Assembly (NCBI GenBank): GCA_029550965.1
Contig: JAKPGJ010000027.1
Span: 62,001 to 126,000 of the forward strand
Source: Bacillota bacterium
Lineage (GTDB): Bacteria > Bacillota > Clostridia > Oscillospirales > CAG-382
DNA: 64,000 nt
Reading direction: 5' to 3'
Below, one piece after another: positions 8,113-60,720 of the stretch. The stretch's first letter is position 1. Each line of letters opens with the position of its first letter. The notes under the pieces were generated by a model, which saw only the letters and a list, made by a program, of their open reading frames with translations, searched no databases and was not told the DNA's origin. Made by a program: the position numbers and the translations under genes.

Positions 8113-8379
8113 ATGCTTTTAAAGGAAGAGAAGCAGAAAATCATTAAAGAGTACGCTGTACATGAGAACGACACAGGTTCTCCCGAGGTTCAGATTGCGA
8201 TTCTTACCAAAAGAATCAATCAGCTCACCGAGCACTTAAAGAAGAACCCGAAGGACAATCATTCACGTAGAGGTCTTTTTATGATGGTCGGAAAAAGAAG
8301 AAAATTCCTGAACTATCTTATGAAGAACGATATTAACCGCTATCGTGAAATTATCGAACGTTTGGAAATCAGAAAGTAA
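8113..8379 (+). CDS. rpsO: 30S ribosomal protein S15
   Basis: The 88-residue product has the S15 signature: [20 protein letters not shown] near residue 16, [14 protein letters not shown] near 42, and the C-terminal [13 protein letters not shown]. It binds the central domain of 16S rRNA early in small-subunit assembly. The ATG at 8113 follows GGAGGTG at 10 nt; the open frame upstream to 7987 is leader. As in many bacteria, rpsO precedes pnp, but here a strong terminator lies between them. Confidence 0.98.
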
Positions 8380-8389
8380 ACAAACGCTT

Positions 8390-8416
8390 GGGCGGGAAAA
8401 ATACCCGCCCTTTTCA
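8390..8416 (+). terminator. Rho-independent terminator of rpsO
   Basis: GGGCGGG, AAAAATA loop, CCCGCCC, TTTTC. It lies 11 bp after the stop codon. Confidence 0.92.
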
Positions 8417-8472
8417 TTAAAAATTTCGGTTTTTAAAAAACTGTTTTTTGGTTATCATACTTTTAAGTAACG

Positions 8473-8563
8473 GGAAGCACAGGGGGTTTAGCCACTAAAA
8501 AATAATTTTATGAAAAAGCATAAAATTATTTTTTAGGTGTTAAACCACATTACCTGTACTTCC
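8473..8563 (+). promoter_or_regulatory. Long hairpin in the 5' leader of pnp
   Basis: An 18-bp perfect stem (8495-8512 with 8519-8536, loop AAAAAG) is extended by GTTTA/TAAAC, ACAGG/CCTGT and GGAAG/CTTCC across small internal loops. The total is 91 nt. A weak promoter-like TTAAAA-N17-CATACT at 8433-8461 would start transcription just before it. In E. coli, pnp is autoregulated through an RNase III-cleaved leader hairpin. A similar role here is inference. A miniature inverted-repeat element is the main alternative. Confidence 0.6.
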
Positions 8564-8618
8564 TTGTGAAAATAGCCAAAAAATAGTTTTACACTCATTT
8601 TTGGAAAGGAAGAAAAAG

Positions 8619-10724
8619 ATGTTTGAGCAGTACAAGGTTTACAGGTATGAACTTGCCGGCAGACCGCTTGTAATCGAAACCGGCAAAATGGCGCAGCTTT
8701 CAAACGGTTCCTGCCTGGTTCGTTACGGCGACACCGCAGTTCTCGCAAACGCAACCGCGTCCGCTGCGCCCAGAGAGGGCATTGATTTTCTGCCGCTCTC
8801 GGTTGACTATGAAGAAAAACTCTACGCCGCGGGAAAAATTCCGGGCAGCTGGAACCGCCGCGAGGGACGTCCGTCCGACAAGGCGATCATTACTTCCCGC
8901 ATGATCGACAGACCGATCCGTCCGCTTTTCCCGAAAGATTTGCGCAACGACATTGTGATTTCCGTCATGGTAATGTCCGTTGACCCGGATTGTTCGCCCG
9001 AAATCGCGGGATTAATCGGCGCGTCCACCGCGCTATCCATATCCGACATTCCGTGGAACGGACCCATCGGTGGCTTGTTTGTCGGACTGGTTGACGGCGA
9101 AATCGTCATCAACCCCAACGCCGAACAGCGTGAAAAGAGCGAGCTTGAGCTTACCGTTGCCGCGACCAAAGAAAAGGTTGTCATGATCGAGGCGGGCGCG
9201 AAGGAAGTTCCCGAAGACATTATGTTCAACGCCATTATGAAGGCGCATGAGGAGATCAAGCCGCTGATCGACTTTATCAGCAGCATCCAGGCCGAAATCG
9301 GCAAGCCTAAGTTCGAGTATCCTTCCTGCGATATCGACCCGGTTATGTACGAGAAAATCGCGGATATGGTTGCCGAAGAGATTAAGGAAGCGCTGTTTAC
9401 CGACGATAAACGCATCCGCGACGAACGGCTGAAGCCCATTTACGATAAAGTTTACGAAGCACTCGCAGAAGAATATCCGGACCAGAAGCCGATGATGAAC
9501 GAGTGCTTATATAAACTTCAGAAGCAGATTGTCCGCCGCTGGCTTTTAGACGAGCAGAAGCGCGTTGACGGCAGAAGAATGGACGAAATCCGCCCGCTCG
9601 CCGCCGAGGTCGGACTGCTTCCGAGAGTGCACGGCTCCGGCATGTTCACCAGAGGTCAGACACAGGTTGTCACGACCTGCACGCTTGCGCCTTTAAGAGA
9701 AGCGCAGATGCTGGACGGCATCGACGACGAAGACACCAAGCGTTATATGCACCACTACAATATGCCCGGCTACTCTACCGGCGAGGCAAAAGCCGCCCGC
9801 AGCCCGGGACGCCGCGAGATTGGTCACGGCGCGCTTGCGGAACGCGCGCTGGAACCGGTTCTCCCCTCCGTAGAAGAGTTCCCGTACGCGATCCGCTGCG
9901 TTTCGGAGGTTATCTCCTCCAACGGCTCGACCAGCCAGGCTTCCGTCTGCGGCTCGACGCTCGCGCTGATGGACGCCGGCGTGCCGATTAAGGCGCCCGT
10001 CGCCGGCATCTCCTGCGGTCTGATTACCGAAGGCGACCGCTGGATGACCATTATGGATATTCAGGGCCTTGAGGACTTCTTCGGCGATATGGACTTCAAA
10101 GTCGCCGGAACCAAGAACGGCATTACCGCGATTCAGATGGACTTAAAGATCGACGGTCTTACTCCCGAAATCATCAAGGCGGCGTTTGAAACCACCAGAG
10201 AGGGCAGACTGTTTATTCTTGACACAGTGATGCTTCCCTGCATCTCGGCGCCGAGACCGGATGTTTCCAAGTACGCGCCCAAGATGATCTCGACCAAGAT
10301 CGACGTTGACAAGATCCGCGACGTTATCGGCAGCGGCGGAAAGGTTATCCAGAAGATTTGCTCCGATACCGGCGCCAAGATAGACATCGAGGACGACGGA
10401 AGCGTATTCATCGCGGCCATCGATAAGGAAGCGGGCTACAAAGCGCTCCAGATGATCGAAGCGATTGTAAAAGACCCGGAGCCGGGCACCGTGTTCGTCG
10501 GAAAAGTAACCCGTATTATGAACTTCGGCGCGTTTGTAGAAATCGCTCCCGGCAAAGAAGGTCTGGTCCACATTTCGCAGCTTGACAAGAAGCGCGTCGC
10601 AAAGGTTGAGGACGTCGTCAGCGTCGGCGACGAGATCAAGGTTCTTGTAACCGAAATCGACGACAAGGGCAGAATCAACCTTTCAAGAAAAGATGCGTTA
10701 AATCTGGTCGACGATAAAAAATAA
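8619..10724 (+). CDS. pnp: Polyribonucleotide nucleotidyltransferase (PNPase)
   Basis: The 701-residue protein shows the full PNPase order: first RNase PH-like domain, alpha-helical linker, second RNase PH domain with GGSTSQASVCG-like sequence (EVISSNGSTSQASVCGS near residue 433), a KH domain (KIRDVIGSGGKVIQKI near 564) and a C-terminal S1 domain (KVTRIMNFGAFVEI, KEGLVHISQL near 631-655). It degrades RNA 3'-5' using phosphate. The ATG at 8619 follows AAGGA at 8 nt; the frame is open to a TTG at 8601 but the conserved start is MFEQYKVYRYEL. It has its own terminator and a large leader hairpin. Confidence 0.98.
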   Translation: MFEQYKVYRYELAGRPLVIETGKMAQLSNGSCLVRYGDTAVLANATASAAPREGIDFLPLSVDYEEKLYAAGKIPGSWNRREGRPSDKAIITSRMIDRPIRPLFPKDLRNDIVISVMVMSVDPDCSPEIAGLIGASTALSISDIPWNGPIGGLFVGLVDGEIVINPNAEQREKSELELTVAATKEKVVMIEAGAKEVPEDIMFNAIMKAHEEIKPLIDFISSIQAEIGKPKFEYPSCDIDPVMYEKIADMVAEEIKEALFTDDKRIRDERLKPIYDKVYEALAEEYPDQKPMMNECLYKLQKQIVRRWLLDEQKRVDGRRMDEIRPLAAEVGLLPRVHGSGMFTRGQTQVVTTCTLAPLREAQMLDGIDDEDTKRYMHHYNMPGYSTGEAKAARSPGRREIGHGALAERALEPVLPSVEEFPYAIRCVSEVISSNGSTSQASVCGSTLALMDAGVPIKAPVAGISCGLITEGDRWMTIMDIQGLEDFFGDMDFKVAGTKNGITAIQMDLKIDGLTPEIIKAAFETTREGRLFILDTVMLPCISAPRPDVSKYAPKMISTKIDVDKIRDVIGSGGKVIQKICSDTGAKIDIEDDGSVFIAAIDKEAGYKALQMIEAIVKDPEPGTVFVGKVTRIMNFGAFVEIAPGKEGLVHISQLDKKRVAKVEDVVSVGDEIKVLVTEIDDKGRINLSRKDALNLVDDKK

Positions 10725-17308: not shown

Positions 17309-17997
17309 TTTTAGGAATGGACACAACCGCCGTAACCGCTTCGGTTGCGATCGTAGAAATAGACGAAAAAGTACGGACATACAGCCTTTTTTCAGTTAAA
17401 AACCGGCTTACGCACAGCGAAACGCTGATGCCCATGGTCAAGCAGGCGCTGGACCTGTACGGCGCGAAGCCTTCGGACCTGAACCTGATTGCGGTCAGCG
17501 TCGGGCCGGGCTCGTTCACCGGCGTGCGCATCGGCGTCGCAACCGTGAAGGGTTTGGCGTTCGGACTGGGGAAAGAGATGCCCTGCGCCGCTGTTTCGAC
17601 GCTGGAAGCGCTGGCGGAAAACCTCTCGCAGCAGGGAGGCATCGTCTGCCCGGTCATGGACGCGCGCAGAAGCCAGTTTTACAACGCGCTGTTTCAAGAC
17701 AGACAGCGGCTGCGCAAAGACAGGCTGATTCGCGCGGAGGAGCTCAAAGAAGAACTGTTGTCGTTCGGCGGGCCGGTCACGCTCTGCGGCGATGGCGCGG
17801 ACCTGTTTTACGCGCTGTGCGGCGAACTGCCGAATATCAAACTCGCTTCCGCGGCGTCGAAAGACCAGAACGCGCTTTCCGTCGCCGTCTGCGGTTACAG
17901 AGCGTTTAAAGAGAACCGGCTTCTGACCGCGAAAGAACTAAAACCGGTTTACCTGCGCGCGTCGCAGGCGGAACGAGAGAAGTTTGGGATTGAATAG
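17302..17997 (+). CDS. tsaB: tRNA threonylcarbamoyladenosine biosynthesis protein TsaB
   Basis: The 231-residue protein has an ASKHA fold with LILGMDTTAVTASVAI at the start and VSVGPGSFTGVRIGVATVKG near residue 66, the TsaB signature. TsaB is a pseudo-enzyme partner of TsaD. Translation probably starts at a TTG (17302) inside the tsaE end, with AGGA 7 nt upstream. In many Firmicutes rimI and tsaD follow; here a heptamer repeat array and rpiB follow instead, suggesting a rearrangement. Confidence 0.93.
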   Translation: MLILGMDTTAVTASVAIVEIDEKVRTYSLFSVKNRLTHSETLMPMVKQALDLYGAKPSDLNLIAVSVGPGSFTGVRIGVATVKGLAFGLGKEMPCAAVSTLEALAENLSQQGGIVCPVMDARRSQFYNALFQDRQRLRKDRLIRAEELKEELLSFGGPVTLCGDGADLFYALCGELPNIKLASAASKDQNALSVAVCGYRAFKENRLLTAKELKPVYLRASQAEREKFGIE

Positions 17998-18004
17998 GCA
18001 GGGA

Positions 18005-18120
18005 GTAAGAGGTAAAAGGTAAGAAGTAAGAAGAAAGTAATAGGTAAGAAGTAAGAGGTAAAAGGTAAGAAGTAAGAGGTAAAAAAGTAATAGGTAAAAA
18101 GAAAGAAGTAAGAGATAAAA
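18005..18120 (+). repeat. Degenerate tandem heptanucleotide array (GTAARAR)
   Basis: About sixteen copies of a 7-bp unit, mostly GTAAGAG, GTAAGAA, GTAAAAG or GTAATAG, run from the end of tsaB to the ribosome binding site of rpiB. The same unit recurs at 39896-39960, again directly before a ribosome binding site. It is non-coding on the plus strand; the open frame on the minus strand is a by-product of the repeat. Confidence 0.85.
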
Positions 18121-18132
18121 AGGAGAGTTGTT

Positions 18133-18582
18133 ATGATAGCGTTAGGCTGCGACCACGGCGGCTTTGAAATAAAAGAAGCCATTAAAAAACATCTTCAGGA
18201 GAAAAACATTCCGTTTATTGATTTCGGCGCCCACTCGACGGACTCGGTCGATTACCCGGACTACGCGCATTTGGTATGCGAATCCATCCAGAAAGGCGAG
18301 AGCGAGTTCGGTATCCTCTGCTGCGGAACAGGAATCGGCATGTCCATCGCCGCGAACAAGCACAAGGGAATCCGCGCGGCCGTGCTGTCAGACGAGTTCT
18401 CCGCCGAGATGACCCGCCGGCACAACAACGCGAACGTCTTATGCTTAGGCGGCAGAGTTATTAACGAGGAAAAAGCGGTAAAACTTGCCGACATTTTCCT
18501 TTCCACCCCGTTTGAGGGCGGCCGGCACGAAAGACGTGTTGAAAAACTAAACGCGCTTGACAAATACATCGAACAGGAGTAA
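18133..18582 (+). CDS. rpiB: Ribose-5-phosphate isomerase B
   Basis: The 149-residue product matches RpiB/LacAB: MIALGCDHGGFEIKEAI at the start, GILCCGTGIGMSIAANK near residue 60 (general-base Cys and phosphate loop) and MTRRHNNANVLCLGGR near 95 (ring-opening His region). It interconverts ribose 5-phosphate and ribulose 5-phosphate. AAAGGAG ends the repeat array 7 nt before the ATG. With deoB and pdp upstream, it links nucleoside salvage to the pentose phosphate pathway. Confidence 0.96.
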   Translation: MIALGCDHGGFEIKEAIKKHLQEKNIPFIDFGAHSTDSVDYPDYAHLVCESIQKGESEFGILCCGTGIGMSIAANKHKGIRAAVLSDEFSAEMTRRHNNANVLCLGGRVINEEKAVKLADIFLSTPFEGGRHERRVEKLNALDKYIEQE

Positions 18583-29904: not shown

Positions 29905-30190
29905 CAACATAATTGAATACCAAAGGCGATGATGAAGACAAGTAGGCTGAAACGCCATGTACAGTGAATCGGGGAGAGTGTGAACCCGGTCAGGGAGCAT
30001 CAGCTGAATAACACTTCGGAGCTGTGAACTGAACCCGTCATCCGGCGGCAAGTAGGGGATCCGTGCTTCGCACGTTACAGCGAATACCAATGTTAGTTGG
30101 GAAAAGTGACCGGCAACGGTAATTTAGGTGGCACCGCGGATAAGCGCTATCCGTCCTAAAGCAAGAGGACTGATAGCGCATTTTTTATTG
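29905..30190 (+). promoter_or_regulatory. T-box riboswitch, asparagine-type
   Basis: The leader has a Stem I base GATGATG / CGTCATC with an AGTA element at 29942-29945. The specifier-loop region GTGAACTGAACCCG contains AAC (Asn) codons. The T-box AGGTGGCACCGCGG at 30126-30139 carries UGGC, whose variable C would pair with G73, the usual discriminator of tRNA-Asn. The terminator stem GCGCTATCCGTCCT / AGGACTGATAGCGC followed by TTTTTT spans 30144-30186. Uncharged tRNA-Asn should favour the antiterminator and turn on asnB. Which of the two AACs is the specifier is not settled. Confidence 0.95.
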
Positions 30191-39864: not shown

Positions 39865-39895
39865 AATAGGAAAAGGAAAATGATACAATAAAAAA

Positions 39896-39960
39896 GTAAG
39901 AGGTAAGAGGTAAGAGGTAAGAAGTAAGAGATAAGAAGTAAGAGGGAAAAAAGATAAGAG
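39896..39960 (+). repeat. Second heptanucleotide array (GTAAGAG)n
   Basis: About eight 7-bp units (GTAAGAG three times, then GTAAGAA, GTAAGAG, ATAAGAA, GTAAGAG and a degenerate GATAAGAG) lead into the GAGGGAAT ribosome binding site of nnrD. The unit and placement match the array at 18005-18120. Confidence 0.87.
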
Positions 39961-39965
39961 GGAAT

Positions 39966-40784
39966 ATGGAAAAGAATTATACGGGACCGCAAACGTTGTC
40001 TTTCATAAAAAAACGCCCGGCGGATTCGCACAAAGGGGTTTTCGGAACGCTGGTTTCGCTGACCGGAAGCCGGTATATGACCGGCGCCGCCTATCTTTCG
40101 TCGATGGGCGCTCTGCGCAGCGGCGTCGGGCTTTTGAAGCTGGCGGCGGACGATTACGTTCAGTCCGTGCTCAAAACCTGCCTTTACGAAGCGGTATTTA
40201 TCCGCCCGGATGAGATGATAAAGCAAAACGCTTCCGCTTACCTGATCGGCTGCGGAATCGGCCGAGAATACGACGGTCTGTTGCGAACGCTCCTGCCCTG
40301 TCTGGATAAACCGACGATTATTGACGCCGACGGAATAAATTATGTAGCTGCGAATATAAATGTATTAAAAAATATGCGTTCCTCGGCCTCACCGATTCTG
40401 ACGCCGCATCCGGCGGAAATGGGGCGTTTGTTGAACAGGGACACCGCATACGTTCAGTCCGGCAGAGAACAGGTCGCGCTGTCTTTCGCCGCCGAATACG
40501 GCTGCGTGCTGGTGTTGAAGGGCAAAAACACCGTCATCGCCGCGCCGGACGGCAGGCTGACCGTCAACACAAGCGGCAACAGCGGGCTTTCCAAAGGCGG
40601 AAGTGGCGACGTGCTCGCGGGCGTTATCGCCTCGCTCTGCGCGCAGGGGTACTCCCCCTACGACGCCGCGGTGGTCGGCGTTTACGTACACGGACTGGCG
40701 GCGGACAGACTTGCCGCGAAATACGGCGAACACGGACTGCTCCCGCGGGATCTGCCGGCGGAAATCGGAGCGATTTTAGGCTAA
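39966..40784 (+). CDS. nnrD: ADP-dependent NAD(P)H-hydrate dehydratase
   Basis: The 272-residue protein matches the ribokinase-like YjeF C-terminal domain: GVFGTLVSLTGSRYMTGAAY near residue 24, IDADGINYV near 119, LTPHPAEMGRLL near 139 and NTSGNSGLSKGGSGDVLAG near 199. It repairs hydrated NAD(P)H with ADP. The N-terminal epimerase domain (NnrE) found fused in many bacteria is missing, so the epimerase must be encoded elsewhere. GAGGGAA precedes the ATG closely, within the end of the heptamer array. Confidence 0.94.
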   Translation: MEKNYTGPQTLSFIKKRPADSHKGVFGTLVSLTGSRYMTGAAYLSSMGALRSGVGLLKLAADDYVQSVLKTCLYEAVFIRPDEMIKQNASAYLIGCGIGREYDGLLRTLLPCLDKPTIIDADGINYVAANINVLKNMRSSASPILTPHPAEMGRLLNRDTAYVQSGREQVALSFAAEYGCVLVLKGKNTVIAAPDGRLTVNTSGNSGLSKGGSGDVLAGVIASLCAQGYSPYDAAVVGVYVHGLAADRLAAKYGEHGLLPRDLPAEIGAILG

Positions 40785-60330: not shown

Positions 60331-60652
60331 TGAGAGGATTTTCCCGCCTGCAAAGCGGAGCGGTGGCGGGGTCTGACAGTCCACCGGACTGTCATTCAAC
60401 ACCCGCCCTTCAAATCCATATAATAAAAAAAGCAGTTGCGGAGCAACTGCATAAATGACAGGCGTTTCGCCTGTCATTTTTTTGGTCTGAGTGAGAGGAT
60501 TTGCCCGCCTGCAAAGCGGAGCGGCGGCGGGGTCTGACAGTCCACCGGACTGTCATTCAACGCCCGCCCTTCAAATCCATATAATAAAAAAAGCAGTTGC
60601 GGAGCAACTGCATAAATGACAGGCGTTTCGCCTGTCATTTTTTTGGTCTGAG
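60331..60652 (-). repeat. Two tandem 161-bp hairpin-rich units next to tRNA-Pro
   Basis: TGAGAGGAT begins at 60331, 60492 and (in the tRNA) 60653, giving a period of exactly 161 bp over two near-identical copies. In tRNA direction each copy holds hairpins AATGACAGGCG-AAA-CGCCTGTCATT and GCAGTTGC-TCC-GCAACTGC-TTTTTTT, then GGCGGG...TGACAGTCC-GGT-GGACTGTCA...CCCGCC. Each ends in a copy of the tRNA 3' end AAATCCTCTCACTCAGACCA (complete in the inner copy, degenerate in the outer copy). Unlike a normal att duplication, the tRNA end is repeated together with terminator hairpins. Confidence 0.88.
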
Positions 60653-60720
60653 TGAGAGGATTTGAACCTCCGGCCTCTACCACCCCAAGGTAGCGCGCTA
60701 CCAAACTGCGCCACACCCAG
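60644..60720 (-). tRNA. tRNA-Pro (anticodon GGG)
   Basis: Minus strand from CTGGGTG at 60720: acceptor CTGGGTG / CACTCAG, D-arm with GTTTGGTAGCGC, anticodon stem CTACC-TTGGGGT-GGTAG giving anticodon GGG, T-loop GGTTCAAATCC, discriminator A and encoded CCA ending at 60644. A TGACAGGCG hairpin and a true terminator (GCAGTTGC stem plus TTTTTTT) follow within the repeat unit. It reads CCC and CCU. Confidence 0.95.

What the first reader, a model, noticed from the sequence alone, without database searches (positions are those of the whole stretch)
8473..8563. 91-nt nearly perfect hairpin forms the pnp leader
The stem has an 18-bp perfect core plus matching outer segments and begins about where the pnp transcript should start. 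E. coli pnp is controlled by RNase III cleavage of a leader stem followed by PNPase decay. An equivalent in a Clostridium-like genome would be a convergent design. The matching outer ends (GGAAG.ACAGG on both arms) also fit a miniature inverted-repeat element inserted between rpsO and pnp.
Basis: partly seen in the sequence, partly recalled or inferred. Interest (0 to 1): 0.55.

Follow-up and report, generated by a model that had tools for sequence, protein, structure and literature searches.

The report
Conserved pnp leader hairpin in Clostridia
The hairpin in front of the gene for the RNA-degrading enzyme PNPase is a real, conserved RNA element of many gut Clostridia and is missing from the RNA family library searched; it probably lets PNPase limit its own production, as a different hairpin does in E. 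coli.

Summary
The hairpin is real (MFE -42.7 kcal/mol, z -7.1). It is not a MITE: the own genome shows one copy, and the same kind of hairpin sits at the same place in over 130 other genomes. In the window's family 45 of 51 pnp leaders carry it. A covariance model put 63 of 64 best sites in other families of the order 16-72 nt before pnp, and 37 of 44 further genomes from a class-wide search have a site 26-100 nt before pnp. An exact core pattern run over named species, blind to gene context, gave 80 loci: 78 before pnp, 2 cut off shortly after rpsO. The stem covaries: 20 of 23 pairs change on both sides. G-U cells outnumber A-C cells 276 to 56, so the sense RNA is selected. One position inside the best conserved part stays non-Watson-Crick in 130 of 135 leaders. 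No Rfam 15 family matches. The likeliest role is PNPase autoregulation through double-strand cleavage, as in E. coli, though without sequence similarity to that leader; cleavage is inferred. An anti-Shine-Dalgarno switch is supported only in some lineages, not in the window.

The parts
8113..8379 (+). rpsO (ribosomal protein S15) coding sequence
   Evidence: translation; ORF
8390..8414 (+). intrinsic terminator of rpsO (GGGCGGG..CCCGCCC TTTT)
   Evidence: terminator scan
8473..8567 (+). pnp leader hairpin, conserved RNA element
   Evidence: fold z -7.1; model R2 match 50.8 bits at window 8480-8551 (the window is one of the 101 sequences R2 was built from)
8486..8498 (+). 5' core half GTTTAGCCACTAA (consensus GUUUAGCA[G/U]UUAA); position 0 is A8494
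   Evidence: alignments A1, A2; profile
8533..8545 (+). 3' core half TTAGGTGTTAAAC (consensus UUAAGUG[C/U]UAAAC); partner of position 0 is G8537
   Evidence: alignments A1, A2; profile
8499..8532 (+). apical stem and loop, variable in sequence, covarying between species
8559..8565 (+). CUUCCUU at the 3' base of the stem, complementary to the Shine-Dalgarno segment (possible anti-SD)
   Evidence: but the predicted fold of the truncated window leader leaves the SD open
8606..8612 (+). AAGGAAG, Shine-Dalgarno of pnp
8619..10724 (+). pnp (polynucleotide phosphorylase) coding sequence
   Evidence: ORF; homologues in whole genomes

Best explanation
A cis-acting RNA element of the pnp mRNA leader, found across one order and in at least 11 other families of its class (probably by vertical descent; no tree was built), and used for negative feedback on PNPase. 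Proposed working: pnp mRNA starts between the rpsO terminator and the hairpin, or is read through from rpsO. The leader folds into a long stem. A double-strand endonuclease (RNase III, or Mini-III) cuts it, guided by the kept non-Watson-Crick position. PNPase then erodes the cut 5' arm from its new 3' end. Loss of that arm lets the 3' arm block translation initiation, by pairing with the Shine-Dalgarno region in some lineages, or opens the mRNA to decay. Shown: the conserved, covarying, pnp-specific, sense-strand stem with a kept mismatch or wobble. Inferred: RNase III, PNPase, and the direction of control.
For: Place: 45 of 51 family leaders; 63 of 64 best sites in other families of the order before pnp; 37 of 44 class-search genomes, 33 of them outside the order in 11 families; 78 of 80 pattern loci before pnp and 2 cut off after rpsO. 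Structure: 101 sequences, 91.5% of cells paired against 71.7% shuffled, covariation 0.525 against 0.166, 0 of 500 shuffles, slid versions at most 46.4%. Sense-strand bias: 276 G-U against 56 A-C cells. Position 0 is non-Watson-Crick in 130 of 135 distinct leaders: 95 purine-purine, 32 G-U wobble, 3 other; 5 are Watson-Crick. Two Ribonuclease_3 genes in the genome, frames of 242 and 137 aa, RNase III and Mini-III by size. E. coli and Streptomyces precedents (passages of PMC10362022, and PMC5872136). In silico removal of the 5' arm lowers median SD accessibility from 0.41 to 0.22 over 103 leaders, against 0.41 with shuffled linkers.
Against: No transcript, cleavage or protein-binding data. The window's own leader does not follow the anti-SD switch: SD unpaired 0.90 intact, 0.86 truncated; its 3' arm base is predicted to pair with early pnp codons instead. 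Only 30 of 131 leaders have an anti-SD run of 6 or more, and 29 of 103 did not lose SD accessibility on truncation. Strong sequence conservation of the core is more than RNase III usually needs (recalled), so another protein may bind it. One genus (g2, 5 loci) has only 16 nt between rpsO and pnp and no hairpin; L060 has none; 3 of 12 further order leaders and 19 of 21 further class leaders, chosen from genomes without a strict hit, do not match at E 0.01.
Confidence: 0.55

Rival explanations
1. The mismatch core is a specific binding site for a protein (PNPase KH/S1 domains or an unknown RNA-binding protein) that represses or activates pnp translation without cleavage.
For: Sequence conservation is concentrated at positions -7 to +3 around the kept non-Watson-Crick pair, with a second weak position at +12, while the apical stem changes freely. 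E. coli PNPase is also reported to act on its mRNA by binding, without its phosphorolytic activity (passage of PMC10362022).
Against: No candidate protein was tested; the long stem above the core would not be needed for a small binding site.
Confidence: 0.27
2. A 5'-end stabiliser: the hairpin shields pnp mRNA from RNase J or RNase Y and is not part of a feedback loop.
For: It probably lies near the 5' end of the pnp transcript, after the rpsO terminator.
Against: A stabiliser needs no conserved sequence or kept mismatch and would not be limited to pnp, yet all 80 pattern loci examined are at the rpsO-pnp junction.
Confidence: 0.12
3. A DNA operator: paired half-sites TTTAGCA / TGCTAAA resemble the HrcA CIRCE operator (recalled: TTAGCACTC-N9-GAGTGCTAA).
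For: Half-site similarity to the recalled sequence.
Against: The spacer between the 13-nt core halves is 23-66 nt in 136 leaders and is itself a covarying stem; where CIRCE has C, only 2 of 135 leaders pair C with G; the G-U bias shows selection on the sense RNA. HrcA sites in the genome were not searched.
Confidence: 0.02
4. A miniature inverted-repeat element inserted between rpsO and pnp.
For: Long inverted repeat in an AT-rich gap.
Against: Single copy seen in the own genome; same site in many genera; compensatory changes.
Confidence: 0.01

Closest known systems
E. coli pnp leader hairpin (RNase III/PNPase autoregulation; Robert-Le Meur and Portier, Jarrige et al. 2001, seen only as citations and in passages of other papers)
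   Same: Long leader stem between rpsO and pnp; its predicted fold also has 1x1 mismatches in the stem, two of them G-G.
   Different: No match of the covariance model in the E. coli leader; no shared core sequence; mechanism not tested here.
Actino-pnp motif, Rfam RF01688 (Table 1 line of PMC2864571)
   Same: A cis-regulatory RNA candidate named for pnp, in Actinomycetales.
   Different: No hit over its cut-off in the own genome (best 14.4 bits, cut-off 47.7) and no hit to it among 32 leader loci searched with E up to 1 or 0.5 (24 of the 32 carry this element).
Streptomyces coelicolor rpsO-pnp intergenic hairpin (passages of PMC5872136)
   Same: rpsO terminator, then a hairpin cleaved by RNase III, then pnp.
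   Different: Actinobacterial; sequence not compared here.

Membership tests
RNase III/PNPase-autoregulated pnp leader (E. coli type) | long double-stranded stem in the pnp leader | tested here: met
RNase III/PNPase-autoregulated pnp leader (E. coli type) | sequence homology to the E. coli leader | tested here: not met
   model R2, filters off, on the E. coli rpsO-pnp region: best 8.8 bits, E 0.44, inside truB; none of the 9 listed matches in the leader
RNase III/PNPase-autoregulated pnp leader (E. coli type) | RNase III gene present | tested here: met
   two Ribonuclease_3 matches over the cut-off, 242-aa and 137-aa frames
RNase III/PNPase-autoregulated pnp leader (E. coli type) | cleavage of the stem by RNase III and PNPase-dependent repression | not testable with these tools
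   needs RNA ends and mutants
Actino-pnp (RF01688) | score over the family's gathering cut-off | tested here: not met
miniature inverted-repeat element | multiple copies in the genome | tested here: not met
   only the locus itself (both strands of the palindrome) and AT-rich matches of 14-28 nt
HrcA CIRCE operator | half-sites TTAGCACTC / GAGTGCTAA with a 9-nt spacer (recalled) | tested here: not met
   spacer 23-66 nt; position 0 rarely C-G
S15 leader (RF00114) | Rfam match at gathering score | tested here: not met
   none in the window; one 21.5-bit match, below the 39.5 cut-off, inside rpsO of L042

The most novel reading that the evidence does not exclude
The kept non-Watson-Crick pair, about one helical turn below a second weak position, is a recognition code for PNPase feedback. 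Leaders of another family of the class fold into the same architecture (helix, 1x1 mismatch, 9-10 bp, 1x1 mismatch, apical stem) with a different sequence (f28: L389, L390, L395). pnp leader stems would then be a widespread autoregulatory device whose sequence is replaced between clades while the geometry stays.
Probability: 0.2. Interest if true: 0.75.

Novelty: new variant of a known kind. Interest (0 to 1): 0.55.

Why it matters
PNPase is a central RNA-decay enzyme. Its leader-mediated autoregulation is described for E. coli, and RNase III cleavage of an rpsO-pnp hairpin for Streptomyces. In the listings of six searches (open-access text only, no supplements) I saw no description of a conserved pnp leader RNA in Clostridia, and Rfam 15 gave no matching family. 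The element occurs in named gut bacteria such as Flavonifractor plautii ATCC 29863 and Pseudoflavonifractor, so the feedback model can be tested. The kept mismatch gives a defined mutation to make.

Tried and rejected
MITE: one copy seen in the own genome. DNA operator of CIRCE type: core spacing, kept non-Watson-Crick pair, G-U bias. Known Rfam family: none at gathering at the hairpin; 16 weak hits among 32 leader loci, 10 of them microRNA families matching long hairpins, none RF01688.

A general anti-Shine-Dalgarno switch: real on average but not general. Runs of 6 or more in 30 of 131 leaders against 8.8% with swapped SDs; 7 or more in 17 of 131 against 2.4%; 24 of 32 groups above their swaps; 29 of 103 leaders did not become less accessible on truncation. 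It fails in the window by fold. The SD mimic in the 5' arm is weaker: 6 or more in 21 of 131 against 8.7%, 22 of 32 groups, 1 of 500 permutations as high.

Sites away from pnp: 7 of the 44 class-search genomes had no site within 200 nt of pnp. Six of these sites were read (L355, L356, L357, L359, L360; L361, 257 nt before pnp): near-perfect palindromes, with C-G at position 0 in four, A-U in one (L357), A-C in one (L359). G996 (E 0.007) was not fetched. G770 has a second, off-pnp site (L358). The one of 64 order genomes whose best hit was off pnp (G058) does have a diverged copy before pnp (L134). Phylum search: 9 of 398 (6 in the order, own genome included); the 3 outside the class are weak (E 0.001-0.007), about what chance gives.

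Genomes missed by the strict filters: 15 order genomes from the printed miss lists (leaving out the family, a 55%-complete genome and one already found by R2); 12 had a pnp match; with filters off 9 of 12 leaders match R2 at E up to 0.001, 3 (L369, L370, L374) do not, though L370 and L374 fold strongly (z -8.8 and -5.4). Of 21 class leaders missed before, L397 (E 2e-4, better on the antisense strand) and L378 (E 0.008) match and 19 do not at E 0.01.

My working note that position 0 is never C-G was wrong: exact counting gives C-G in 2 of 135. In the 42-sequence alignment one of five measures, further pair types, was not exceptional (43 of 500 shuffles as high).

Limits of the counts: related sequences are not independent, so shuffle counts are not probabilities. 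A1 and A2 were anchored on the core, and leaders were found with models of it, so core conservation is somewhat favoured. The window is in A1 and A2 and matches R1 and R2 by construction. L074 and L081 were assigned by eye. Group labels for one search were typed from the tables; 5 of 136 leaders had no scored start and were left out; L060, L074 and L081 were skipped, and L086 has no rpsO in its stretch and was not.

Full report
Observation. Window 8460-8580 folds into one long hairpin at -42.7 kcal/mol (z -7.1 against 200 dinucleotide shuffles, none as low). It lies after the rpsO terminator (8390-8410) and before pnp (ATG 8619). The own genome (2.07 Mb, 54 contigs) shows no second copy; the other matches are AT-rich pieces of 14-28 nt.

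Family. pnp was located in 55 of 63 genomes of the family. 51 leaders with the pnp start were fetched. 45 of 51 carry a hairpin with the core GUUUAGCA[G/U]UUA ... UAAGUG[U/C]UAAAC or a close variant: 42 by the core finder, L086 by pattern and model, and L074 and L081 by eye, with 390 and 342 nt between the core halves against a median of 31. Five leaders of one genus (g2) have only 16 nt between rpsO and pnp and no hairpin, and L060 has none. On 42 distinct hairpins, the window included, 91.6% of cells pair against 80.1% shuffled, and covariation is 0.320 against 0.127, 0 of 500. RNAalifold predicts 22 pairs, 16 with changes on both sides.

Order. Model R1 hit 91 of 345 genomes of the order under strict filters. 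In the 64 hit genomes outside the family, pnp was located independently; 63 of 64 best sites lie 16-72 nt before the pnp match, two of them scored on the other strand of the palindrome. Leaders of 60 were read. The core UUUAGCAGUU[A/G]A ... U[C/U]AAGUGCUAAA is plain in most. Some depart from it: L123 was scored better inverted, L137 has C-G at position 0, and L134, L136 and L144 have U in place of the 3' G. With 101 sequences, 20 of 23 pairs show changes on both sides, 91.5% of cells pair against 71.7% shuffled, covariation is 0.525 against 0.166, and slid versions reach at most 46.4%.

Beyond. Model R2 hit 48 of 292 genomes of the class. Of 44 whose pnp was then located, 37 have the site 26-100 nt before pnp; 33 of these are outside the order, in 11 families. 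In the phylum sample 9 of 398 hit: 6 in the order, own genome included, and 3 weak ones outside the class. Of the 80 loci listed, 78 are before pnp (in 73 of these the extrapolated start is 34-78 nt on; the rest are 97, 139, 205, 206 and one partial alignment that begins 130 nt on), and 2 end 70-90 nt after the motif, which follows rpsO by 64-75 nt. Titles include Flavonifractor plautii ATCC 29863, Pseudoflavonifractor capillosus and phocaeensis, Oscillibacter, Agathobaculum, Lawsonibacter and MAGs labelled Monoglobus.

Genomes without a strict hit. Fifteen such order genomes were taken from the printed lists; 12 had a pnp match. With filters off, 9 of the 12 leaders match R2 at E up to 0.001. 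So the strict-filter counts understate the spread within the order, and some lineages lack the element. Of 21 such class leaders outside the order only 2 match at E 0.01.

Anatomy. Taking the kept non-Watson-Crick pair as position 0, positions -6 to -1 and +1 to +3 are nearly always paired and nearly fixed in sequence (in the family -3 is G-U in 18 and unpaired in 11 of 42); +4 to +11 is a covarying helix without length change; +12 is weak (often C-A in family and order); +13 to +16 is an apical helix. At position 0, 135 distinct leaders have G-G 77, U-G 29, G-A 12, A-G 6, G-U 3, A-C 2, U-U 1, and Watson-Crick pairs in 5 (C-G 2, G-C 1, U-A 1, A-U 1). Below -8 pairing in fixed register drops to about half. 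Over 3098 stem cells, G-U occurs 276 times and A-C 56 times, the sign of selection on the sense RNA. The window's copy is diverged but intact: A8494 faces G8537, the neighbouring A-U has become C-U, a U-A has become C-G, and the apical stem is a perfect A/U-rich helix. R2 scores it 50.8 bits, E 7e-9, but the window was in the model.

Mechanism. In E. coli, PNPase promotes decay of its own mRNA by digesting a short RNA that protects it, and also acts by binding (passages of PMC10362022). In S. coelicolor an intergenic hairpin just upstream of pnp is cleaved by RNase III (passages of PMC5872136). The same layout here, with two Ribonuclease_3 genes in the genome, makes the same logic the likeliest. 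Removing the 5' arm in silico lowers median SD accessibility from 0.41 to 0.22 in 103 leaders, against 0.41 with shuffled linkers; 74 of 103 fall, 26 by more than 0.3, and 7 rise by more than 0.3; 23 of 103 rank among the lowest 5 of 100 shuffles. Own anti-SD runs exceed swapped ones (mean 4.56 against 4.00, 0 of 500 permutations). Examples: L078 (CUCCUUG against CAAGGAG, with CAAGGAG also in the 5' arm) and L046. Many leaders lack this, and the window has the 7-nt complement (8559-8565 with 8606-8612) but does not fold that way. The anti-SD step is therefore optional.

Comparison with the known. R2 finds nothing in the E. coli leader, although that leader also folds into a long stem with G-G mismatches. 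Rfam's Actino-pnp (RF01688) is the nearest named family by gene; it comes from PMC2864571 (Table 1 passage) and does not match here. The main texts of PMC7247131, PMC8632094 and PMC6429828 contain none of the pnp terms searched; their supplements were not read. PMC3328962 was read in passages.

Verdict. A conserved, pnp-specific leader RNA with no match in Rfam 15: the observation and its conservation are firm. Feedback through RNase III and PNPase is the favoured but untested mechanism.

Noticed in passing
L389 93-155 (minus strand), L390 326-385, L395 323-381 (pnp leaders of family f28, same class): A different hairpin before pnp, CCGAGAC-N-RCUGA ... UCAGU-N-GUUUCGG, with a non-Watson-Crick pair kept at N (C-A, A-C, U-U) and the same helix-mismatch-helix-mismatch layout (z -7.4 to -8.3).
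   Followed up: partly
L375 near 145 (minus strand), L379 near 142 (minus strand), L382 near 334 (pnp leaders of families f171, f170, f172): A third type of pnp leader hairpin, with GUAG...GUAG[A/C]UUG / GAAUCUAC...CUAC in the arms; some clades seem to have their own sequence version.
   Followed up: partly
L074 and L081 (pnp leaders): 390 and 342 nt between the core halves against a median of 31, both halves kept, so the loop tolerates large insertions.
   Followed up: no
L057, L058, L059, L061, L082 (genus g2): rpsO and pnp only 16 nt apart, no hairpin; a natural deletion to compare expression with.
   Followed up: no
window 8552-8567 with 8632-8646: The 3' arm base of the window hairpin is predicted to pair with early pnp codons (ACAAGGUUUACAGGU), enclosing SD and AUG, in both the full and the truncated leader; chance not excluded.
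   Followed up: no
window 29920-30161: T-box leader, 94.4 bits.
   Followed up: no
window 17975-18137 and 39873-39974: Two purine-rich arrays of GTAAGAGGTAAGAA-like units about 22 kb apart.
   Followed up: no
window 60331-60652: 161-nt unit in tandem, 98% identical, containing the palindrome AAATGACAGGCGTTTCGCCTGTCATTT, next to a tRNA gene at 60647-60720.
   Followed up: no
L360 (1473-1543) and L188 (1501-1571), same genus: Near-perfect palindromes away from pnp that share the arm GCACTTAACTTTGTGC; perhaps one locus or a small mobile palindrome.
   Followed up: no
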